DNA of 56,886 nt, from assembly GCA_947598585.1 (NCBI GenBank), contig CANQFK010000009.1:1-56886 (forward strand). The letters are read 5' to 3'. Below, piece by piece: positions 3,001-19,202 of this stretch. The notes below the pieces were generated by a model that did not search any database, was not told the DNA's origin, and saw only the letters and a list, made by a program, of their open reading frames with translations. The translations under genes were made by a program, and so were the position numbers. How positions within the stretch are numbered: the stretch's first letter is position 1; each line of letters starts with the position of its first letter. This stretch comes from an uncultured Clostridia bacterium. GTDB lineage: Bacteria > Bacillota > Clostridia > Christensenellales > Pumilibacteraceae.

Positions 3001-5091
3001 TTGACATTCGGCGGAGTAGACGAAAGTTACGAGTATACGGGCAAGGAAATCAAGCCGCAACCCACAGTGAAGTTTGGCGAGATCGAACTTAAAACAAACA
3101 GCGACTTTACCGTGACCTATAACAGCGACAAGGACGGCGATAAGTGCGTTGACGTTGGCGAAGTTACCGTTACAGTTAGCGGACAAGGCAACTATACGGG
3201 CAGTAAGATGTTGACGTTTGCTATCACCCCCAAGACCGCAAGCGACGCGCAGATCGAAGTGACGGGCAACTACGTTTACAACGGCGAAGAGCAAAGTGTT
3301 GATTTGGCGGTTACGTTAGCAGACTACACAATTACGTCAAGCGACTACACCGTAGATTATGGAACATCCGATCGCATAAATGTTGGCACAGTGAACTTTA
3401 CCGTTAAATTCCAGGGCAATTTCAGCGGAAACAAAGAACTTACTTTCCGAATCACAACCAAGAACGCGTCATTAACAGTAGACGAAGTCAAGTTTACTTT
3501 TGACCGCACCGAACACAACGCAACGTCCGCGACTTACACATTTACCGATGTGTTGCCCGACGATCAAAAGGATATCACAGTTATCCTCAACGGCAGCGGC
3601 ACAAACGTTGGCAGTTATGATGTCACCGCAACTTTCGGCGGCGACAAAGCTGGCAACTACAACATTACCGTCAACGGTAGCAAAAAGCTGGTAATAGAGG
3701 CGGCAGAGATAGACAGCGTTAACGTTACGAGTACCCACACCTATAACGGTGAGGAACAAACTCCCACTCTTACGGTCAAGGCCGGCGAGATCGAACTCAA
3801 TTCCGACGAGTACAGCGTTAGCTATGTTGGCAACCGTATCAATGCGAGCGAGGAAGTGACTGTCAGGGTGGAAGCGAAAGGACAAAACTTTGTCGGCAAC
3901 GGTAGCGCGACATTCCAAATTGCAAAAGCGCCTGTTACCGTGACGGTAAACAACCAACAAAGCGTTTATGGTGAAAACTTTGTTAGCGAGTTTACATTCG
4001 ACGAAGATGGCGTGCTTGCAGTGGACCAAGACAGAGTACGCATAAAAGATTACCTGAATATAGTGTGCAACGCAAGCGCGACCAAAAATGTCGGAGATTA
4101 CGAAATAACCGCGACCATAACATCACAACCGGATAATTATGTGATAACGGTAGCTAAGCAAGGCACATATACGGTGACCGCGCGACCGGTTACGGTGACT
4201 GTAAACGATCAAGACAACGTATACGGCTACAACAAGGACTACGCTTTTGTCGCCGGAGCTTGGAGTGTTACCGAGGGCACGCTTGCATACGACGAAACCG
4301 ATGAGATTCTCGGAATAACACTCACCAAGCCGCAGATTACCGGTGCCGGTACCTATGCTATCACGGCTTCTTGGGACAACAACAATTATGAGGTGACATT
4401 TGAAGGCAGCTGGGCAGGCGAGGACGAACACAAAGATCATGCAGGCACATACACGGTGACCAAATTGCAGTTGACCGACGGTGAAAATGCAACTCACTTC
4501 GTTCTCAGCGTAGACGACGACGTGTTCAACGAGCAGTCGCCCGAGCCTTACAATTATGACGGGACCGCGATAAAACTCACCGCACAGGTGGCTGTCGATG
4601 AGGGCGACGATTATCGTATGCTCGAAGCGACAGTGGATCCCGCGGAGATCACGCAAAGCGGCGTTATAGAGGTGACCGTAACAATAAATGACAACAACTA
4701 TTACGGAAGCAAGACATTTACTCTCCTCGTGCTGGACGAAAGCGGTTACACTACCAATATTCACACTGTGCTTGCCGCTCTCGATGAGTTGGTGGGCGAT
4801 GTGACGATCGATACGCTCGCTTCTACCGAGGAATACTTCGTTATGGTAAAGGGCATTATCGAGGAAATCAATAAACTTACCGAGGAAGAAAAACAGATCG
4901 CTTCCGAAGAACTTCAAAAGTATATCGACCTTGTCGACGCTTGGAATAGCGCTGCCGACCTTAACGAGAACGTCATTGAAACCGCAAAGGCATTGGCTGA
5001 CGCACCTATCAAGTGGCTGTTCTTGGTCGCTTCGATCAACGCACTGCTTGCCGCTATCATTATATTTTCAAAAGGAGGGATAAGATTATGA
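1..5091 (+). CDS. Giant repeat-built surface protein, 3' part (N-terminus outside window)
   Basis: The frame is open to the left edge, so this is the C-terminal part (about 1,696 residues) of a larger protein; the GTG at 13 is not a convincing start. Most of it is a chain of beta-rich modules of about 80-90 residues with recurring signatures (YTGKAQKP, NVGTVNFTV, ITKA/ITPK joints), followed by MBG-like modules (VTVNDQDNVYGYN). This resembles bacterial surface Ig-like/MBG repeat proteins. A charged helical stretch precedes a C-terminal hydrophobic segment ending in Lys/Arg, consistent with a membrane anchor; no LPXTG motif is seen. Modules at 1792-2198 and 3028-3434 are nearly identical in DNA. 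The stop overlaps the next gene's start (ATGA), so the two are translationally coupled. Role inferred: adhesin or cell-envelope scaffold. Confidence 0.85.
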   Translation, partial: YNFEVEMNGQGADYETKTDFMIMPGATVKVGAGATLTLNANTWVYDGFVQTALHSKSYPTADNLKAVGYSKSGNLIVDGTLIIGEKTTVKDFSLDEMFGGGKPFVPKVIPAIFLGVVQTNGTGRIEIPAETVLQETISDGISGSNYFEYTTTARVWDAVHECFGVLEAGRNYNATSSEEFTLTNRTYTNTKGGVETLTLKLDQTMQGSWKVEHGDSHILDWSKQDSDNLPDEQTKHTTITRQCSELGCDHSESRELLYVPESWGDITYTGDNFTDEQLQAAINKLFGDDYDLFEKAGASLSHETIKDVNEMGYDITVTLTKGFWVSSSNYTTDNVARTLKIKVKAAELTAENVEVIGNVTYSGQAQRPTIKVTYNGHELTLDTHYNVEYRDNTNAGQATITVTMIDDNYTGEFEVHFTIDPLEITDAQIDGIADSYTYTGKAQKPVPSLTVNGLAVPQGDYNVVYSHDGKDATCTNVGKVTVTVTMQENKNFIGTVSKTFEITKANANGAQVTVKGEYTYSGSAQTPESGNVQVTLDGFETLVYEQDYTFTATTNTNAGAATVTVTFKGNFEGSAIGTFQINKKDIADITFNGVNNSYEYTGKKIKPQPTVKFGEIELKTNSDFTVTYNSDKDGDKCVDVGEVTVTVSGQGNYTGSKTLKFTITPKTASDAQIEVTGNYVYNSQAQSVTLAVTLADYTITSSDYTVDYETSDRVNVGTVNFTVKFQGNFSGSKEATFQIAKAKVTVKPQAKESPEGEAQVTLTYDIEGTMYNNDEDTLKSGITLKLNGDLSSKKAGETLKIIVELSEDVKAQLSNYEIDVSQTADYTLTDAVFKDVTVENVNVTYDGVAHPVTVNGKPDRAQVTIEYKQDGQAVQGEPKDAGVYDVTVTVTLDSYKELTVQRKVTISVKKLTITVQKQTVTYSGTEQHPNSSGSYWSVTGAVQGESVTLNLSASLTDVGKTDIVATVEAGNNTKLSNYTYEESSLTVKDGFEVIAKDIDGLTFGGVDESYEYTGKEIKPQPTVKFGEIELKTNSDFTVTYNSDKDGDKCVDVGEVTVTVSGQGNYTGSKMLTFAITPKTASDAQIEVTGNYVYNGEEQSVDLAVTLADYTITSSDYTVDYGTSDRINVGTVNFTVKFQGNFSGNKELTFRITTKNASLTVDEVKFTFDRTEHNATSATYTFTDVLPDDQKDITVILNGSGTNVGSYDVTATFGGDKAGNYNITVNGSKKLVIEAAEIDSVNVTSTHTYNGEEQTPTLTVKAGEIELNSDEYSVSYVGNRINASEEVTVRVEAKGQNFVGNGSATFQIAKAPVTVTVNNQQSVYGENFVSEFTFDEDGVLAVDQDRVRIKDYLNIVCNASATKNVGDYEITATITSQPDNYVITVAKQGTYTVTARPVTVTVNDQDNVYGYNKDYAFVAGAWSVTEGTLAYDETDEILGITLTKPQITGAGTYAITASWDNNNYEVTFEGSWAGEDEHKDHAGTYTVTKLQLTDGENATHFVLSVDDDVFNEQSPEPYNYDGTAIKLTAQVAVDEGDDYRMLEATVDPAEITQSGVIEVTVTINDNNYYGSKTFTLLVLDESGYTTNIHTVLAALDELVGDVTIDTLASTEEYFVMVKGIIEEINKLTEEEKQIASEELQKYIDLVDAWNSAADLNENVIETAKALADAPIKWLFLVASINALLAAIIIFSKGGIRL

Positions 5092-5654
5092 AAAAGAGAT
5101 TGGCAATTCTTACGATTTTGTTTATGCTGGCGGCGGTAATGCTTGCCGCTTGTGCAGATCCTAAACTCACGGCAATAGAAATTTTGCAACAACGGTATAA
5201 TGATATAGCGACAGCCAAGACGATCAAACAGGAAATAACGATAACACAGGGCAACTTTACGCAATATGAGAGTACTGTGACCTATACCAAAACAGAATCG
5301 GGTTATAACGTTACGGGAAGCGAAAAGAGACTCAATGACGCAAACGCCGAACAGATGTATTCCGTCACGCAAGTAAACGAACAAGTTAGCAGCGCTTCGG
5401 AAGCCAAACCCACGATCAAGTTGGACGAAAGCTACTTTGAAGAAGGTTACCGTCTGACTGAAACAGGGCTTGCGGCAACGGTCAAAGCGGAATACGTCAA
5501 AGAGGTGTTCGGAACTACGGACGAGGATCTGAAAGCGCCTACAAACAACCTTACGGTTGAAATGGACGTGACTGACGAGCATCTCGCAACTATGCGAATC
5601 GGTTATGTTTCGGACGGCAGCAACGTTACGATAGTTCTCACCATGAGTTATTGA
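5088..5654 (+). CDS. Small lipoprotein coupled to the giant surface protein
   Basis: Protein of 188 aa. The start at 5088 is chosen because AAAGGAGGG lies about 8 bases upstream and the ATG overlaps the previous stop; an upstream in-frame start at 5013 would add residues inside the previous gene and destroy the signal peptide. The N-terminus is a lipoprotein signal (MKKR, hydrophobic run, LAAC lipobox), so the mature protein should begin at Cys20 and be lipid-anchored outside the cell. The rest is Thr/Glu-rich and probably beta-structured; I recognise no family. Coupling suggests it works with the surface protein, perhaps in its folding or anchoring; that is inference. Confidence 0.85.
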   Translation: MKKRLAILTILFMLAAVMLAACADPKLTAIEILQQRYNDIATAKTIKQEITITQGNFTQYESTVTYTKTESGYNVTGSEKRLNDANAEQMYSVTQVNEQVSSASEAKPTIKLDESYFEEGYRLTETGLAATVKAEYVKEVFGTTDEDLKAPTNNLTVEMDVTDEHLATMRIGYVSDGSNVTIVLTMSY

Positions 5655-5717
5655 TTTGATATTTTTCGTTTTCAAATCGTTCAATATACCCGAACTTTAA
5701 TAGGAATATTACTAAAC

Positions 5718-5755
5718 AGTTACTTTGCGGTCGTCATTGCTTCCGCAAAGTAACT
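5718..5755 (+). terminator. Hairpin after lipoprotein gene
   Basis: A perfect 13-bp stem (AGTTACTTTGCGG pairing with CCGCAAAGTAACT) with a 12-base loop lies 63 bases after the lipoprotein stop. It is followed by TATGTAAT rather than a strong T run, so it may be a weak terminator or an mRNA 3'-end stabiliser. It separates the surface-protein operon from the ABC transporter operon. Confidence 0.6.
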
Positions 5756-5858
5756 TATGTAATACTCATTCATTGGATAAATAGGGAATAATCACGAATA
5801 ATATTTATAAGAAAATTCGGAAACTATTTTACGAATAATTTAATCAAGGAGAAAAACT

Positions 5859-6728
5859 GTGCATAATACCAAGGCATTCGCTCAACTCAATAATGACAGT
5901 TCAACGCCGAAAAAATTCTCGGAAAATGCAGATAAATCGGATCGAAAAACCCCGATAGTGGAAATAGACGGACTATGTAAAAAGTATTCAAAAAAGGCAG
6001 ATTACGCCGTTCGCAACGTTTCATTCAACTGTTATGCGGGCGAAATAGTGGGCTTGTTGGGTCATAATGGCGCAGGCAAATCTACGACTCTTAAATGTTT
6101 GGAAGGAATGTTGCCCTTTGATGAGGGCAAAATTATGATCGACGGTCATGATGTAAAAAAAGAACCCATTGCAGCAAAAGCCAACATGGGCTTCGTGACT
6201 GATAATCATGCGGTGTTTGTTAAAATGACAGGCATGGAATATCTATCCTTTATGGCAACGGTTTATAAGGTCCCGCAGGATATAAGACGCGAGCGTTATG
6301 AGCAGTTGGAAAAAATATTTTGTTTAGGCGACGCCGTCAACAACCTCATCAGTAGCTATTCGCACGGTATGCGACAAAAAATATGTATGATGGGCTCGCT
6401 TATGCATTGGCCCAGGCTATGGATTTTGGACGAACCGTTGACGGGACTCGATCCGCGCACGATGAAAGCGGTTCGTGAATTTATGAAAGATTACGCCGCC
6501 GAAGGCAACTGTATAATATTCAGTTCTCACGCTTTGGCAAGCGTTGCTCAGATCTGCGACAGAGTGGTGCTCATTCGCCGAGGGCAACAAATAGACGCGC
6601 TGAATATACGGCAAATGATGAATGACGATCCCAACTTCGACTTCGAAAGTTTTTTCTTGGAGGGCGAGCGCCGTGCGGAAGAGGAAATGGAGCGCAAAGA
6701 GCAGGTGGACGACAATGAAAAAAATTGA
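5859..6728 (+). CDS. ABC transporter ATP-binding protein
   Basis: A 289-aa cytoplasmic ATPase that would power the permease encoded next. Walker A GHNGAGKST is at about residues 68-76, the signature SYSHGMRQ at 166-173, Walker B LWILDEP at 187-193, the D-loop GLDPR at 196-200 and the switch His at 224. The usual Q-loop glutamine appears replaced (GFVTDNH). A 30-residue polar N-terminal extension precedes the domain. The start is GTG, preceded by AAGGAG. The 3' end overlaps the permease start by 14 bases. Organisation resembles ABC-2-type exporters with one ATPase and one permease. Substrate unknown; neighbouring secreted proteins make export or envelope work plausible. Confidence 0.93.
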   Translation: MHNTKAFAQLNNDSSTPKKFSENADKSDRKTPIVEIDGLCKKYSKKADYAVRNVSFNCYAGEIVGLLGHNGAGKSTTLKCLEGMLPFDEGKIMIDGHDVKKEPIAAKANMGFVTDNHAVFVKMTGMEYLSFMATVYKVPQDIRRERYEQLEKIFCLGDAVNNLISSYSHGMRQKICMMGSLMHWPRLWILDEPLTGLDPRTMKAVREFMKDYAAEGNCIIFSSHALASVAQICDRVVLIRRGQQIDALNIRQMMNDDPNFDFESFFLEGERRAEEEMERKEQVDDNEKN

Positions 6729-12231: not shown

Positions 12232-12397
12232 TGATTTCTCCCCAAGAAGCGTTTTTGTGTGCCGTGAAATTATTATAGCATAAAGACGTCTTTTGAGCAA
12301 GTGATCGGAGCGGGACGGAGAATAAACCGTTGCGTTTTATTTAAAATCATCATAAAAACAAATCGAAAATAAAGGCAACAAAAAAATATATTACACT

Positions 12398-12431
12398 ATA
12401 ACCGTGGGGCGAGAGCCTATACGGTTATTTT
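12398..12431 (+). promoter_or_regulatory. Leader hairpin with T run before recombinase gene
   Basis: ATAACCGT pairs with ACGGTTAT; inside it GGC-GAGA-GCC forms a GNRA-like tetraloop hairpin. The outer stem is followed directly by TTTT, and the recombinase ribosome site (AGGAG) and ATG come 12-25 bases later. It looks like an attenuator or leader terminator that could keep recombinase levels low. It matches no riboswitch that I know. Confidence 0.55.
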
Positions 12432-12453
12432 CATAATAGGAGAGAAGAAGGAA

Positions 12454-13404
12454 ATGAAATTAAAGGAATGGCTTAACGAGTGGCTCGATAAGCAAGTCAG
12501 GATAACGTCGAAAGAGCGGACTTACAAAAAGTACCGCGGACAAGCGGAAAAATATATTATTCCCATTTTGGGAGATTACGATCTCGGATCGCTCACGCAA
12601 AAGGAAATGTATGAGTTTTCGAGCGTGGTAAAGGCAAAAGGGCTTTCTTCATCGACGATAAATTGTATCATAACGATTTTGAAATCCGCCTGGAAAGCGG
12701 CAATGATCATGGGATTTGTATCAAAACCGATAGCAAACGTCATCATTCGTCCGCCTGTAATGTGGAAAAAGACGGAATGTTTCACTAATGCCGAGCAGCA
12801 AAAAATAGAAAAATACATATTCGGTTGCAACGATCCGAAGCTGTTCGGGATATTGTTATCCTTATATACCGGGCTCCGTATCGGCGAACTTCTCGCACTC
12901 ACCTGGGAGGACATAGATCTAAAAAAAGGAACAATGTCCATAAATAAATCCTGTCATGATTGTTGGGTGAACGGAAATTATTTTAAGATAATCGACGAAA
13001 CAAAGACTACAAGTTCCGAAAGAATAATACCATTGCCACGACAGATATTATATTATATGAGAGAATTAAAACGCAAAACGAAAAGTAAATTTGTAGTGGT
13101 GGGCAAATCGATATACGGTGCGCAGATACGCTCATATCAACGCACCTTTGAACATATGTTGATTAAACTGAACATAAAGAAAAAATGCTTTCATTCGCTC
13201 AGACATACGTTCGCGACGAGAGCATTGGAAGTCGGAATGGACGTAAAGACGCTTTCGGAAATACTCGGGCATAAAAATCCGATGATAACGTTACGGCGTT
13301 ATGCCCATTCGCTTATGGAGCACAAGGCGGAGATGATGAACAGAGTAGGGCAAATATTGAATTGCGAAATACAAAAAAAGCGGCAACCTATATGCCGCAA
13401 TTAA
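12454..13404 (+). CDS. Tyrosine recombinase/integrase, candidate invertase of the adjacent promoter switch
   Basis: Protein of 316 aa with an N-terminal SAM-like DNA-binding domain (about 1-95) and a C-terminal catalytic domain. The catalytic set is complete: Arg142 (TGLRIGE), Lys184 (ETKTTSSE beta-hairpin), His247 and Arg250 (HSLRHTF), His273 (LGHKN) and nucleophile Tyr283 (RRYAHS). The start ATG follows AGGAGAGAAGAAGG. The stop codon is immediately followed by the left 24-bp inverted repeat, so gene and recombination site are one unit. Phage/ICE integrases have the same fold, but no other mobile-element genes are nearby. Its likely job is inverting 13431-13554; that is inference from position and site architecture. 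Confidence 0.93.
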   Translation: MKLKEWLNEWLDKQVRITSKERTYKKYRGQAEKYIIPILGDYDLGSLTQKEMYEFSSVVKAKGLSSSTINCIITILKSAWKAAMIMGFVSKPIANVIIRPPVMWKKTECFTNAEQQKIEKYIFGCNDPKLFGILLSLYTGLRIGELLALTWEDIDLKKGTMSINKSCHDCWVNGNYFKIIDETKTTSSERIIPLPRQILYYMRELKRKTKSKFVVVGKSIYGAQIRSYQRTFEHMLIKLNIKKKCFHSLRHTFATRALEVGMDVKTLSEILGHKNPMITLRRYAHSLMEHKAEMMNRVGQILNCEIQKKRQPICRN

Positions 13405-13406
13405 GT

Positions 13407-13430
13407 ACATAGAATATATTGTTCTATGTA
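13407..13430 (+). repeat. Left inverted repeat of the invertible switch (IRL)
   Basis: A 24-bp sequence that recurs, reverse-complemented and without mismatch, at 13555-13578. It is itself built like a tyrosine-recombinase core site: opposing arms ACATAGAA and TTCTATGT around a 7-base asymmetric spacer (TATATTG). It starts three bases after the recombinase stop codon. Confidence 0.92.
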
Positions 13431-13442
13431 GTTTTTTTATAG

Positions 13443-13468
13443 AAAAAAGCGTCTTGCGACGCTTTTTT
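13443..13468. terminator. Bidirectional terminator inside the invertible segment
   Basis: A perfect 11-bp stem, AAAAAAGCGTC with GACGCTTTTTT, and a 4-base loop (TTGC). T runs exist on both strands, so it can end transcription from either side and would work in both orientations of the switch. Confidence 0.92.
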
Positions 13469-13513
13469 AGGAGAATTATATTGCGTTTTTATAGAATAAT
13501 TTACTTTTTTTAC

Positions 13514-13542
13514 TTGACAATCGGATAATTTTGTTATATAAT
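13514..13542 (+). promoter_or_regulatory. Consensus sigma-A promoter inside the invertible segment
   Basis: TTGACA at 13514-13519, a 17-base spacer, and TATAAT at 13537-13542: a perfect match to the housekeeping consensus. The expected transcription start is about 13549, just before the right repeat, giving a leader of about 120 bases to the pilin ATG. Confidence 0.93.
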
Positions 13543-13554
13543 AAATGCACAAAG

Positions 13555-13578
13555 TACATAGAACAATATATTCTATGT
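13555..13578 (-). repeat. Right inverted repeat of the invertible switch (IRR)
   Basis: The exact reverse complement of 13407-13430 (24 of 24). The asymmetric spacer reads CAATATA here, so the two sites point toward each other, and recombination between them would invert rather than delete the segment. Confidence 0.92.
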
Positions 13579-13635
13579 CATTTTTATGGTTCAGGTAGTA
13601 ATGCCGCGAAACGTCCCTAAACGGCTTTATATACA

Positions 13636-13653
13636 AAAAAATCATGATTTTTT
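13636..13653. repeat. AT-rich perfect palindrome in the pilin leader
   Basis: An 18-bp perfect palindrome: six A, TCATGA, six T. It lies in the untranslated leader just before the pilin ribosome site (AAAAGGAG). It could bind a dimeric regulator or form a short hairpin masking the ribosome site. Confidence 0.6.
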
Positions 13654-13670
13654 AAAAGGAGAACGAAAAA

Positions 13671-14093
13671 ATGAAGAAACAAAACAAGAAAGGCTTTACG
13701 CTTGCGGAACTTTTGATAGTAGTAGCTATCATAGCAGTTCTTACCGCTATTGCAGTTCCTCTCTTTGTAGGAGCGCTTAATAGAGCAGAAGAAAATGTTG
13801 AGGCAGCTAATATCCGTGCGGTTCGCGGTGCTGCGGTAGAAGAAATTTTGATGAATGGCGATGAGAAGGGCTATTTCGATTGCTTGGGCACTCCTGCAAA
13901 AGCGTGGAATGTTGAAGCATATGTAACAGCGAGTGGAGAAATCCATGATATGACAATTATGCCAAAGCCCTTTGTAGAAACTACAACGTCAGAATGCAAA
14001 AAATTGTCGAAAGCAGATGAAAAGGGCAAACAGGGTGAATATAAGGTAGTGCTTGTGATAACGGAATTAGATGCTACCAATTCCTTAAATTAA
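13671..14093 (+). CDS. Type IV pilin-like protein (orphan prepilin/pseudopilin), target of the switch
   Basis: Protein of 140 aa with a textbook class III signal: KKG then FTLAE, cleavage expected between Gly8 and Phe9, Glu at +5, and a 20-residue hydrophobic helix ending in IAVP. The C-terminal domain is short, with two cysteines (in DCLG and ECKK) that could form a disulfide loop. AAAGGAG precedes the ATG. No prepilin peptidase, PilB, PilC or other pilin is in the window, so assembly would rely on machinery elsewhere. It would be processed and inserted in the membrane, then built into a pilus or pseudopilus. Its only visible promoter is inside the invertible segment, predicting ON/OFF expression. 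Confidence 0.9.
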   Translation: MKKQNKKGFTLAELLIVVAIIAVLTAIAVPLFVGALNRAEENVEAANIRAVRGAAVEEILMNGDEKGYFDCLGTPAKAWNVEAYVTASGEIHDMTIMPKPFVETTTSECKKLSKADEKGKQGEYKVVLVITELDATNSLN

Positions 14094-14099
14094 CATATC

Positions 14100-14221
14100 T
14101 TTTCTCCGTTAGGGATAATGACACGGAGAAAAATGTTTTACAACCTAAAAGCCCAATGCGGCATTGCAAGGGTATGTCGCATTAGCTTAAATATCGTATC
14201 CGACAGGGATGTAAGGATACG
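14100..14221 (+). ncRNA. Candidate CsrA-type hairpin array in the pilin 3' UTR
   Basis: Three successive hairpins present similar loops. Hairpin 1 (14100-14132, stem TTTTCTCCGT) has TAGGGATAATG. Hairpin 2 (14149-14188, stem AATGCG with an AAGC extension) has CAAGGGTATGT. Hairpin 3 (14195-14221, stem CGTATCC) has ACAGGGATGT. The last matches the ACARGGAUGU core of the published CsrA SELEX consensus, in the favoured loop position. It could be a 3' UTR or a processed small RNA that binds or titrates a CsrA-like protein. No csrA gene is in the window, so this rests on pattern only. Confidence 0.4.
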
Positions 14222-14255
14222 AAAAACAGCGGAACTGAATTGTTTCGCTGTTTTT
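14222..14255 (+). terminator. Intrinsic terminator after the pilin gene
   Basis: AAAAACAGCG pairs with CGCTGTTTTT, ending in five T. It closes the pilin transcript and the hairpin array. Confidence 0.85.
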
Positions 14256-14261
14256 CGTCTG

Positions 14262-14281
14262 TTTATGCGTGACATAATAAG
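14262..14281 (+). repeat. 20-bp direct repeat, copy 1
   Basis: Identical to 17471-17490. On the minus strand it contains TTATGTCACGCATAA, a member of the TATGTCnnnCATA family. The two copies flank the rnhA to NERD block. Confidence 0.75.
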
Positions 14282-14375
14282 GACATAATTTAATAATATA
14301 AAAGACCGTCACTAAGATCGAAAATTTCATATCAAAAAAATTTTCGTCTTTTGATCGGGATAACGCAATAAAGAT

Positions 14376-14404
14376 TTGATTGCTTCGCTCACATGTGATA
14401 TAAT
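14376..14404 (+). promoter_or_regulatory. Promoter of rnhA
   Basis: TTGATT, a 17-base spacer and TATAAT, followed by a leader of about 66 bases to the rnhA ATG. Confidence 0.75.
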
Positions 14405-14476
14405 ACAAGCATAAATGCTTGCTTGCAAGGGAAAATTTGCAATAAAAAGAGTTATCACAAATTATAAGGTGTTTAA

Positions 14477-14920
14477 ATGAAACAGGTTACAATATATACC
14501 GACGGGGCTTGCAGCGGGAATCCGGGCATGGGCGGATATTGCGCTATACTTACTTATTTGGGGCATCAAAAAACGGTGAGCGGCTTTGAGGATATGACGA
14601 CAAATAACAAAATGGAACTTACAGCCATTATCGAGGGCCTGAAAGCCTTAAAAGAGCCTTGTAAAGTCGAAATTTACAGCGATTCAAGTTATTGCGTAAA
14701 TGCCATAAATAACAATTGGATAACAGCCTGGCGATCCAACGGCTGGAAAACGAGCGATAAAAAAGAAGTTAAGAATATTGAATTGTGGCAAGAACTTTTG
14801 GAATATATGAAAAAACACGAGGTGACTTTTATCAAAGTCAAGGGACACGCGGACAATGAACTGAATAATCTGTGCGATAAAATCGCTCGAAAAGAAATCG
14901 AGGCACATTCCAAGCAATAA
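14477..14920 (+). CDS. rnhA: Ribonuclease HI
   Basis: A 147-aa RNase H1 that cuts the RNA strand of RNA-DNA hybrids (Okazaki primers, R-loops). The four acidic catalytic positions are visible: Asp9 (YTDGACSGNPG), Glu in NKMEL, Asp in YSDSSY and Asp in LCDKIA. The WRSNGWKTSDKK stretch is the basic-handle region of bacterial RNase HI, and KVKGHADNELNN holds the conserved His. Length is usual. AAGGTG precedes the ATG. Confidence 0.96.
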   Translation: MKQVTIYTDGACSGNPGMGGYCAILTYLGHQKTVSGFEDMTTNNKMELTAIIEGLKALKEPCKVEIYSDSSYCVNAINNNWITAWRSNGWKTSDKKEVKNIELWQELLEYMKKHEVTFIKVKGHADNELNNLCDKIARKEIEAHSKQ

Positions 14921-14949
14921 TATCGGGCTCGATAACATAAAATAATATT

Positions 14950-15789
14950 ATGGGATCTAAAAGGGGATTGATATACAGAACGCTTCTTGCATTACTTTGC
15001 ACGGTAATGATAGTTTTGTCGTGTATCTTTTTGAATTCTCTCAACCGCGCGCTGAAAGTGACGGTTGTTTTCATGTTCACTATCGGCTTTATAATTTTTT
15101 GTCTTATAGAGGATAAATATAAGATCCCGCTAAGAATAACGACAGTAATTATTATAGGCGCCTCGATAATCGTTGCGATTTATATCGTTATGGAACTTTT
15201 CGACCTGATCAAGTACTTCGAGGACTTCGAAGTAATAAGAGATTTCGTGCTGAACACCAAGCAATGGGGCGTGATCGTTTATTTGCTGTTGACTGTTTTC
15301 CAAGTTGTTTTTTTGCCGATACCTGCCGCGGTAACGATTTTGATAGGCGTAGCGATCTACGGTCCTTTTATTGCGTTCGTTCTGTCGCTTGCGGGAACAT
15401 ATTTGGGCGCCGTGATCTGCTTTGCGCTGGGCAAAACTTTCGGCAGAAAACTTATCTCCTGGATGATAGGTAAGGAAAATTCCGAAAAATACGGTAAACT
15501 GCTTAACGACAAGGGCAGGTGGGTGTTTGTCTTGATGCTTTTGTTTCCGTTTTTTCCCGACGACACATTGTGTCTGGTAGCAGGCACAACTTCCATGAGT
15601 TGGAAATTCTTTTTGCTTTCGACGCTTTTCACGCGTCCCGAAACGATAGCGTTTATCAGCTTTTTCGGCAGCGGACAGATAATTCCTTATTCCGGCTGGG
15701 GGATCCCTGTTTGGATAGGGATTTTTGTTCTGTGCATAGCGTTGCTGATCATAGCCGCCAAAATAAAGAAAAAACTTACAAGTAAATGA
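14950..15789 (+). CDS. TVP38/TMEM64 (VTT domain) membrane protein
   Basis: A 279-aa protein with about six hydrophobic segments. Two N-terminal helices are followed by the VTT core (about 105-240), with the re-entrant signature GTYLGAVICFALGKTFGR and the motif FPFFPDDTLCLVAG, typical of TVP38/TMEM64 proteins related to DedA and thought to act in lipid scrambling or envelope homeostasis. There is no Shine-Dalgarno site; a TAAAAT box ends 6 bases before the ATG, so the message may be leaderless, although the -35 is poor and coupling to rnhA is possible. Confidence 0.88.
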   Translation: MGSKRGLIYRTLLALLCTVMIVLSCIFLNSLNRALKVTVVFMFTIGFIIFCLIEDKYKIPLRITTVIIIGASIIVAIYIVMELFDLIKYFEDFEVIRDFVLNTKQWGVIVYLLLTVFQVVFLPIPAAVTILIGVAIYGPFIAFVLSLAGTYLGAVICFALGKTFGRKLISWMIGKENSEKYGKLLNDKGRWVFVLMLLFPFFPDDTLCLVAGTTSMSWKFFLLSTLFTRPETIAFISFFGSGQIIPYSGWGIPVWIGIFVLCIALLIIAAKIKKKLTSK

Positions 15790-18098: not shown

Positions 18099-19202
18099 AT
18101 GGAAAGCAAAAAAGATAATTTCTACGCCCAGCGTGACGAAAATAATTTAGCAAAGATAAAATCGATCTGTCAAGAACTGCCTTCTTATGTAAAAGAATTT
18201 ATTGTGGGGATCCAGATGCGAACGTCTACTCTTACAAGATTGAACTACGTTTACGATTTACGCATCTTTTATGATTATTTATCCAAAGAAGTCTTTCCGC
18301 AATTAAAGCCAAACGAGATCGAACTCGCCGATTTAGAACAACTTAAAGCGTTTGATATAGAATTATATATGGATTATCTTTCTTCTTACGAATTTAAAGG
18401 AAAAAGATATCAATGCGGCGAACGTGCCAAAGAACGTAAATTATGCTCTTTGAGATCGTTCTTTAAATACTTCTTTAACAAAGATCGCCTTTCGAGCAAC
18501 ATTTGTACAAAGGTCGACCTTCCCAAAAAACATGAAAAACCCATAATAAGGCTCGAATCGGACGAGGTCGTAAAACTGTTGGATCGCGCTGATTCGAATA
18601 CTCTGACAGACATAAGCAAGCGTGAAAACTCTTATCATGACATTACCCGCACTCGCGACGTCGCTATTTTGACTTTGTTTTTAGGCACGGGTATTCGTAT
18701 TTCGGAATTGGTCGGACTCAATCACGAAGATTTCGATTTCAGTATGAATAGCTTTTCGGTCACTCGCAAAGGCGGCAACAGATCGGTCCTGTATTTTACC
18801 GACGAGATCGCAAACGCTTTGAAAGCCTATTGCGCATGGCAGCAAGAGCAAATCGATGAGCAAAATGAGTTCGGATTGAAGATCGCGGATCAAAAAGCCA
18901 TGTTCTATTCTATCCAAGGTAAACGCATTTCGGTCAGAGCAGTTGAAAACCTTGTAAAAAAATACGCTAAACACATCACTCCGTTAAAAAAGATCACGCC
19001 GCACAAACTTCGAAGCACTTTCGGCACCGAACTTTATCACAACACTCAGGACATTTACGTCGTCGCCGCAGTTTTGGGTCATAAGGATATAAACACCACA
19101 AGACGCCACTATGCCGCTACAAGCGAAGATATAAAACGAAGAGCCGCTCGTTCGGTCAAACTCCGTGATGACAGCGACAAAAATGACGATGACACCAAAT
19201 AG
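18099..19202 (+). CDS. XerS-like tyrosine recombinase
   Basis: A 367-aa site-specific recombinase. The catalytic residues are complete: Arg200 (GTGIRISE), Lys224 (TRKGG), His302 and Arg305 (PHKLRSTFG), His328 (LGHKD) and Tyr338 (RRHYAA). The long N-terminal core-binding domain (about 25-140) and overall length match the XerS type used as a single chromosome-dimer resolvase in streptococci, rather than XerC/XerD of about 300 aa. HKLRST replaces the usual HxLRHT. It may be the chromosomal Xer recombinase of this organism. It stands alone, between the gene-free stretch and the PadR gene. No dif site could be identified with confidence. Confidence 0.88.
   Translation: MESKKDNFYAQRDENNLAKIKSICQELPSYVKEFIVGIQMRTSTLTRLNYVYDLRIFYDYLSKEVFPQLKPNEIELADLEQLKAFDIELYMDYLSSYEFKGKRYQCGERAKERKLCSLRSFFKYFFNKDRLSSNICTKVDLPKKHEKPIIRLESDEVVKLLDRADSNTLTDISKRENSYHDITRTRDVAILTLFLGTGIRISELVGLNHEDFDFSMNSFSVTRKGGNRSVLYFTDEIANALKAYCAWQQEQIDEQNEFGLKIADQKAMFYSIQGKRISVRAVENLVKKYAKHITPLKKITPHKLRSTFGTELYHNTQDIYVVAAVLGHKDINTTRRHYAATSEDIKRRAARSVKLRDDSDKNDDDTK

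What the first reader, a model, noticed from the sequence alone, without database searches (positions are those of the whole stretch)
12454..14093. Self-contained phase-variable promoter switch controlling an orphan type IV pilin
Two perfect 24-bp inverted repeats (13407-13430 and 13555-13578) enclose 124 bp with a perfect TTGACA-17-TATAAT promoter pointing out toward a pilin gene, plus a bidirectional terminator. A complete tyrosine recombinase gene ends 3 bases before the left repeat. Each repeat has two opposed 8-9 bp arms around an asymmetric 7-base spacer, as expected of tyrosine-recombinase core sites, and the spacers are in inverse orientation. Invertible promoters with tyrosine recombinases are known (fim switch, Clostridioides difficile RecV-controlled switches), but a three-part cassette of recombinase, switch and single pilin is, as far as I know, not a described system.
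Basis: partly seen in the sequence, partly recalled or inferred. Interest (0 to 1): 0.93.

Follow-up and report, generated by a model that had tools for sequence, protein, structure and literature searches.

The report
Genome-wide invertible switches for pilin genes
In a bacterium of the class Clostridia, likely a gut dweller, several closely related promoter segments, found in both orientations, sit in front of scattered type IV pilin genes with shared starts and divergent ends, and one adjacent recombinase is predicted to flip them all, which would let the cell change the pili on its surface.

Summary
Confirmed: perfect 24-bp inverted repeats, a consensus promoter aimed at a pilin gene, a two-way hairpin, and an adjacent tyrosine recombinase gene with the expected catalytic residues. 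The reading as a self-contained cassette for one orphan pilin is too small. The same genome holds five complete switches with these arms before short pilin genes (one pilin cut by a contig end), and seven pilin genes share this cassette's 3'UTR element. Five pilins compared are 81-90% identical at their starts, 19-37% beyond. A same-genus genome has 15 complete switches, 14 sharing one core (one in reverse), before pilins, large pilin-like proteins and lipoproteins. Inversion is visible: the window's 124-bp segment matches two paralogues 119/124 only when inverted, with collinear right flanks (149/152). In a related cassette, Pumilibacter muris and another genome, flanks >99.7% identical, carry opposite orientations. 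In the OFF state the promoter would fire into a terminator. Action in trans, expression and pilus assembly are inferred. The logic is closest to Mycoplasma penetrans mpl and Clostridioides difficile RecV; I found no report of type IV pilins as targets in a limited search. Verdict: new variant of a known kind.

The parts
12454..13404 (+). tyrosine recombinase gene (316 aa; Phage_integrase + Phage_int_SAM_3), predicted DNA invertase
   Evidence: Pfam; R142, K184, H247, R250, H273, Y283 invariant in the 14 aligned sequences, the window's included (catalytic roles recalled); nearest solved chains 'Int protein' 6en0/6emy
13380..13398 (-). terminator-like hairpin facing leftward, just outside the left repeat, inside the 3' end of the recombinase gene; would stop the OFF-state transcript
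   Evidence: GCGGCATATAGGTTGCCGC then T7; -11.0 kcal/mol, 4 of 200 shuffles as good; same hairpin at C46 (L021 1123-1141), a different one at C35 (L020 670-653)
13407..13430 (+). left recombination site (24-bp inverted repeat, spacer TATATTG)
13431..13554 (.). 124-bp invertible segment
   Evidence: 119/124 identical to the C46 and C33 segments only when inverted
13443..13468 (.). hairpin inside the invertible segment, terminator-like on both strands; would insulate the pilin from recombinase read-through in either orientation
   Evidence: not listed by the pattern scan (its T run pairs in the stem)
13514..13542 (+). sigma-70 consensus promoter TTGACA-17-TATAAT pointing to the pilin (ON in this assembly)
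13555..13578 (-). right recombination site (24-bp inverted repeat)
13657..13661 (+). ribosome-binding site AGGAG
   Evidence: read from the sequence
13671..14093 (+). type IV pilin gene (140 aa, N_methyl motif, long helix plus four strands in the predicted model)
   Evidence: no confident PDB match by fold
14157..14222 (+). conserved 3'UTR RNA element (two hairpins with AGGG-containing loops) shared by this pilin family
14219..14258 (+). terminator-like hairpin after the pilin

Best explanation
The window carries the recombinase-bearing member of a set of closely related promoter segments, found in both orientations and scattered over one genome, each of which would switch its own type IV pilin gene on or off, and the adjacent tyrosine recombinase is predicted to flip all of them. 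Shown: perfect inverted recombination sites with a promoter inside; the same segment in opposite orientations at three paralogous loci with collinear right flanks; a pilin or pilin-like gene start after each of the six complete switches of this genome; and, in a same-genus genome, 14 switches sharing one core sequence before three families of surface-type proteins. Inferred: the recombinase binds the 8-9 bp arms, exchanges strands in the 7-base spacer and inverts the segment between the two sites; in the ON state the promoter reads into the pilin; in the OFF state it fires leftward into the terminator at the end of the recombinase gene while the internal hairpin keeps the pilin silent. Because the loci have separate sites, cells would carry different ON/OFF combinations, mostly OFF if the assemblies are typical, and pilus machinery encoded elsewhere in the genome would assemble whichever pilins are ON.
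For: Sites, promoter and hairpins. 15 genomic sites against 0 in the control pattern. Paralogous inversion: C9 against C46 and C33, inner segment 119/124 inverted but 67/124 and 66/124 as is, right flank 149/152 collinear. Counterpart cassette in same-genus G007 (recombinase 76% identical) in the opposite state. Natural inversion in the family: L177 (Pumilibacter muris) against L176, recombinase-side flank 899/901, target-side flank 998/1000, inner 116/119 inverted and 67 of 143 alignment columns as is. G007: 15 complete switches, 14 with spacer TAAGTTA (one of them in reverse polarity), 3 ON and 12 OFF. Pilins C9, C46, C35, C19 and the unswitched C39: residues 1-52 81-90%, rest 19-37% identical. 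Recombinase hits in G000 lie on C9, C27, C17, C5 and C47 only, none on C46, C33, C35, C19. Sites track the recombinase: in the 31-row clade holding the window's protein (support 94/88, below the starred level), 14 of 16 rows with a detected site match my label (TAGAAT, TAGATT or complements) and the other two (L083, L183) have AGAAT/ATTCT cores; outside it 2 of 33 match the label. Pilus machinery: T2SSE-family ATPases and, by my reading of translations, PilC, prepilin peptidase and PilM/N/O around the unswitched C39 pilin.
Against: No reads were available, so both orientations at this very locus in one population were not seen. Among switches with these arms only C9 and C27 have a recombinase gene beside them; C17 has an intact paralogue, C5 one with stops beside a diverged switch, C47 a partial one, so trans action by the window's enzyme is an inference. 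Two G000 switches use the spacer TAAATTG instead of TATATTG and C27 uses TAAACTA; they may need another enzyme. Only 38 of 72 recombinase loci with at least 300 bp downstream show a scored inverted repeat there, and 12 of 76 upstream controls also do (shuffles 0 of 72). C27's state is a tie by promoter score and G007 C20's a near tie, 2.0 against 2.5. States are those of assembled consensus. Foldseek found no confident PDB match for the pilin model (0 at E <= 0.001), though the sequence profile matches solved pilins, mostly over their N-termini. Pfam gave no hit for the G007 large pilin-like and lipoprotein-like proteins tested.
Confidence: 0.78

Rival explanations
1. A local switch only: the window's recombinase flips just its own neighbour, and the other switches are served by other paralogues or are idle.
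For: In about half of the relatives found (38 of 72) a recombinase gene is followed directly by its own switch-like repeat; this genome has further recombinase paralogues.
Against: C9, C46 and C33 have identical 24-bp sites and near-identical segments, C46 and C33 lie inverted relative to C9, and no recombinase hit lies on contigs C46 or C33 (C33 is cut just after its switch). In G007, 14 switches share one core, and of the four strong recombinase paralogues only C27 has that core beside it (C13 and C3: no repeat found; C71: another core).
Confidence: 0.12
2. The recombinase is mainly a mobility enzyme: it spreads terminator-switch-pilin cassettes between loci and species, and promoter inversion is a by-product.
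For: The C9 and G007:C27 cassettes share recombinase, leader, pilin start and 3'UTR, but four other window genes tested were not found in the 9-kb G007 stretch. Left-flank homology stops after 34 bp (C9/C46) or 161 bp (C33/C27 start); for C35/C19 it runs about 150 bp to C19's contig end. The L176/L177 cassette is almost identical in more diverged near surroundings. The nearest solved relatives are integrases.
Against: The two sites enclose only the promoter segment and not the pilin gene, and they are inverted, which gives inversion and not excision. A promoter match with at most 2 mismatches lies inside 20 of the 21 switches scored, C27 having 3, and OFF-side terminators lie outside the three checked.
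Confidence: 0.1
3. Assembly artefact or fossil: the opposite orientations come from misassembly, or the switches are no longer active.
For: The genome is in 59 contigs and several pilin copies lie at contig ends.
Against: Opposite orientations are also seen between L177, on a 212,698-bp contig of a named strain, and another assembly; the window's repeats are perfect, 119/124 identity implies inversion since a recent duplication, and catalytic residues are intact.
Confidence: 0.04

Closest known systems
Mycoplasma penetrans mpl (P35) lipoprotein family
   Same: Paralogous surface-protein genes, most of 38 thought to be switched by their own adjacent invertible promoter, at several chromosomal loci, with a tyrosine recombinase as the agent (passages seen in PMC2268961 and PMC8593674; the original papers were not seen).
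   Different: Targets there are lipoproteins; here the window's targets are type IV pilins (G007 has lipoprotein-like targets as well). The host here is a Clostridia bacterium. Homology of the recombinases was not tested.
Clostridioides difficile RecV switches
   Same: One tyrosine recombinase with a role in several dispersed invertible regions of a Clostridia genome (passages of PMC5903667).
   Different: According to the passages the repeats differ between sites except Cdi2 and Cdi5, and only Cdi7, which RecV did not affect, has a recombinase nearby; here the sites are shared across loci and the targets are paralogous families. Relation of the enzymes was not tested.
Bacteroides fragilis Mpi global invertase
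   Same: One enzyme, at least thirteen scattered invertible regions (as told in a passage of PMC5903667).
   Different: Mpi is a serine recombinase; the passage names polysaccharide loci as targets.
Clostridia invertons of group 139 with invertase group 35
   Same: Tyrosine-type recombinases beside invertons, 32 of 33 invertons from Clostridia (PMC11892184 section 8).
   Different: The terms 'pilin' and 'pili' do not occur in that paper's main text; whether its enzymes are relatives of this one was not tested.
Escherichia coli fim switch; Moraxella Piv; Neisseria pilE; R64 shufflon (all recalled)
   Same: Recombination that varies pili.
   Different: fim controls chaperone-usher pili at one locus; Piv and the shufflon invert coding sequence; Neisseria uses gene conversion.

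Membership tests
Invertible promoter (phase-variable switch) | promoter enclosed by inverted repeats | tested here: met
Invertible promoter (phase-variable switch) | both orientations occur in nature | tested here: met
   Paralogues C9 against C46/C33 and L177 against L176 in the same recombinase family. Not at the window's own locus within one population.
Invertible promoter (phase-variable switch) | inversion depends on a recombinase and changes expression | not testable with these tools
   needs the bench
Tyrosine recombinase | catalytic domain and R-K-H-R-H-Y residues | tested here: met
   PF00589 99.7 bits; residues invariant in the 14 aligned sequences (roles recalled)
Type IV pilin | prepilin N-terminal motif and hydrophobic helix | tested here: met
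   PF07963, TIGR02532; profile matches solved pilins, mostly over the N-terminus
Type IV pilin | globular domain like a solved pilin | tested here: inconclusive
   Model of long helix and four strands at mean pLDDT 87.8, but Foldseek against PDB gave 0 matches at E <= 0.001 and no type IV pilin among the 50 of 720 matches shown
mpl-type multi-promoter inversion regulon | paralogous surface genes each with its own switch | tested here: met
   surface location itself inferred
mpl-type multi-promoter inversion regulon | one recombinase flips all | tested here: inconclusive
   Same sites at several loci and site type follows the enzyme clade, but no activity test
mpl-type multi-promoter inversion regulon | recombinase homologous to that of M. 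penetrans | not tested
   the M. penetrans sequence was not fetched
Shufflon / coding-sequence inversion | invertible segment carries coding sequence of the target | tested here: not met
   The segment 13431-13554 holds promoter and hairpin; the pilin starts at 13671

The most novel reading that the evidence does not exclude
A recombinase-driven combinatorial pilin system: one tyrosine recombinase independently flips a promoter in front of each member of a dispersed type IV pilin family (and, in a sister species, of large pilin-like and lipoprotein families, up to 18 loci), so that each cell displays its own mixture of pilins. The unit terminator-switch-pilin-3'UTR RNA behaves as a mobile cassette that multiplies within a genome and recombines between species, and the shared sites also allow exchange between loci. 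It would be a route to type IV pilus antigenic variation distinct from gene conversion and coding-sequence inversion.
Probability: 0.5. Interest if true: 0.78.

Novelty: new variant of a known kind. Interest (0 to 1): 0.68.

Why it matters
It would give Clostridia of the gut a way to diversify type IV pili, structures used for adhesion and as phage receptors (recalled), by switching whole pilin genes on and off at many loci with one enzyme. Relatives of the recombinase were found in many Clostridia genomes, many from gut samples by their titles, and one, Pumilibacter muris, is a named strain with a cassette caught in one orientation while another genome has the other. So inversion, trans action and switching rate can be tested in a commensal culture.

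Tried and rejected
CsrA: the 3'UTR loops resemble CsrA sites (recalled), but no CsrA match was found in the genome, so this was dropped. Rfam: no match in 12300-15000 at E up to 1 and none in the window at gathering score. tRNA: none in the window. Pfam on G007 targets: no hit for L129, L131 (large pilin-like) and L135 (lipoprotein-like), so those labels rest on the N-terminal motif and lipobox read by eye and regex (recalled motifs). Foldseek for the pilin model: no useful match. Literature: ten searches (two of them only on Pumilibacter). None of the titles and abstract starts shown describes invertible promoters driving type IV pilin genes; the library holds only openly licensed papers, and searches showed 20 of 30, 20 of 48, 20 of 74 and 12 of 31 papers. 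The first idea, a single self-contained cassette, was given up. The tree used 93 of 116 sequences (duplicates and rows with internal stops dropped; matches shorter than 270 residues were not taken in); its site labels come from my regex and are noisy (for example L017's 'site' looks like a dispersed repeat), and the bootstrap had not settled. In one search, 10 of 82 loci with under 300 bp after the recombinase were left out of the count. Of the 35 G007 sites, 2 were not seen in the fetched stretches.

Full report
OBSERVATION. The finding is in the sequence as described. Two perfect 24-bp inverted repeats (13407-13430, 13555-13578) enclose 124 bp. Each is a near-palindrome of 8-9 bp arms around a 7-base asymmetric spacer, TATATTG, inverted in the partner. 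The enclosed promoter is a 12-of-12 match, TTGACA-17-TATAAT, pointing to the pilin. A hairpin at 13443-13468 folds about equally well on both strands. The recombinase ORF 12454-13404 ends two bases before the left repeat and the pilin ORF runs 13671-14093. The recombinase has Phage_integrase and Phage_int_SAM_3 domains, and the residues expected of the active site (R142, K184, H247, R250, H273, Y283; assignment recalled) are invariant in 14 aligned sequences, the window's included.

NOT A SINGLE CASSETTE. The window is contig C9 of a 1.43-Mb, 59-contig genome, G000. The site pattern occurs 15 times there with up to 2 mismatches against 0 for the reversed control. Thirteen of the fifteen fall into six complete switches (C9, C46, C33, C35, C19, C27) plus one half switch at the start of C27; the other two (C51, C3) are single sites. 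C9, C46, C35 and C19 precede a complete short pilin gene; C33 runs into a pilin start at its contig end; C27 has its own recombinase (59% identical) and a 1,863-aa protein with a pilin-like start. Recombinase hits lie on C9, C27, C17, C5 and C47 only. Among pilins C9, C46, C35, C19 and the unswitched C39, residues 1-52 are 81-90% identical and the rest 19-37%. A 3'UTR element occurs seven times in G000, each time after a pilin gene, and not on C39, whose pilin lies in an operon that by my reading encodes PilC, prepilin peptidase and PilM/N/O. T2SSE-family ATPases are present.

INVERSION SEEN IN PARALOGUES. Compared with C9, the 124-bp segment of C46 and of C33 is 119/124 identical when inverted but only 67/124 and 66/124 as it stands, while the flank on the pilin side is 149/152 collinear in both. 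The switches of G000 are in different states: C9 ON; C46, C33, C35 and C19 OFF; C27 a tie by score and probably OFF. The half switch at the start of C27 has its -10 region next to the outer flank, so by eye it is OFF.

INVERSION SEEN AT ONE LOCUS. A recombinase of the same family (52% identical) in Pumilibacter muris (L177) and in another genome (L176) is followed by a switch and the same 339-aa lipoprotein-like gene. The recombinase-side flank is 899/901 and the target-side flank 998/1000 identical, and the inner segment is 116/119 identical only when inverted. In 300-base steps, identity is 99.7-100% from about 3900 to 6000 outside the switch, 73-92% in the 2.4 kb before it, 94-99.7% further upstream (1-1500), and 76-96% after it. 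The cassette was therefore probably exchanged between the two lineages recently and inverted after that (inference).

A SAME-GENUS GENOME. Of these, 33 were seen in the stretches fetched: 15 complete switches and 3 halves at contig ends. Targets of the 15: 2 short pilins, 6 large proteins with a pilin-like N-terminus, 6 lipoprotein-like proteins of one family, and 1 zinc-ribbon protein. Thirteen have the spacer TAAGTTA reading toward the target, one has it reversed, one has TATATTA; 3 are ON and 12 OFF, C20 by a narrow margin. G007:C27 is the counterpart of the window's cassette (recombinase 76% identical) and is OFF; four other window genes tested were not found in its 9-kb stretch. Across the family, 9 of 74 genomes have a site with up to 1 mismatch; 3 of 74 have a control hit.

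THE RECOMBINASE FAMILY. In 38 of 72 loci with at least 300 bp after the gene, a scored inverted repeat follows it, against 12 of 76 upstream controls and 0 of 72 shuffles. Targets seen include lipoprotein-like proteins, a NusG-like protein (Pfam) and, by eye, transporters and regulators. In the tree, 14 of 16 rows with a detected site in the 31-row clade of the window's enzyme match my site label and the other two have AGAAT/ATTCT cores; outside it 2 of 33 match the label (clade support 94/88, bootstrap not settled). This fits site preference following the enzyme.

MECHANISM. In the ON state the promoter would read into the pilin (AGGAG stands 9 bases before the ATG). In the OFF state it would read out through the left site into a leftward terminator at 13398-13380 that lies inside the last codons of the recombinase gene. 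The same hairpin stands at the OFF side of C46 and another terminator at that of C35, and a hairpin with a T run is visible at the OFF side of G007 loci L132, L133 and L136 (by eye). The internal hairpin would stop read-through from the recombinase gene in either orientation. That the enzyme acts in trans on all loci, that expression follows orientation, and that the pilins enter a pilus are inferences.

COMPARISON. By logic this is nearest to Mycoplasma penetrans mpl, where most of 38 lipoprotein genes are thought to be switched independently by adjacent invertible promoters (passages of PMC2268961) through a site-specific tyrosine recombinase (passage of PMC8593674), and to C. difficile RecV and B. 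fragilis Mpi (passages of PMC5903667). Invertase-inverton pairing in Clostridia is known (PMC11892184 section 8). I saw no description of type IV pilins as the targets in the listings of ten searches of an open-licence library, which is a limited search.

VERDICT. The mechanism class is known; the arrangement (a dispersed pilin repertoire under shared switch sites, with cassettes that appear to multiply and move) is a new variant. What is missing is read-level proof at this locus and a trans-action test.

Noticed in passing
window 14157-14222; G000 C9, C10, C19, C26, C28, C35, C46; G007 C3, C27, C47; G001 C44, C74: A conserved two-hairpin 3'UTR element (GGCATNGCAAGGGTATGYCG, then a hairpin with AGGGATG in its loop) occurs in 3 of 74 family genomes, 12 places, control 0; 11 of 12 have a pilin ORF upstream and the twelfth is 5 bases from the start of the stretch held. 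Of 19 predicted pairs, 6 show changes on both sides and 6 have at least one sequence broken or gapped; no Rfam match.
   Followed up: partly
window 18099-19202: A second tyrosine recombinase, scoring best against XerS and XerC models but below their cut-offs, is probably the chromosomal Xer enzyme; not evidently related to the switch.
   Followed up: no
L176 and L177, about 3900-6000: A recombinase-switch-lipoprotein cassette 99.7-100% identical outside the switch between two genomes whose near surroundings are 73-96% identical, suggesting recent exchange of the whole cassette.
   Followed up: partly
G007 C32 (L136): One of 14 switches has the spacer in reverse polarity relative to its target, possibly a trace of exchange between loci.
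   Followed up: no
L205 (same record as L089), L194, L088: Some switches of the family stand before NusG-like genes (Pfam for L205; the others by eye), which could make an antiterminator phase-variable.
   Followed up: no
L018 (G000 C5) 1268-1414: A recombinase copy with stops is followed by a diverged switch with promoter ON before a non-pilin gene of unknown function.
   Followed up: no
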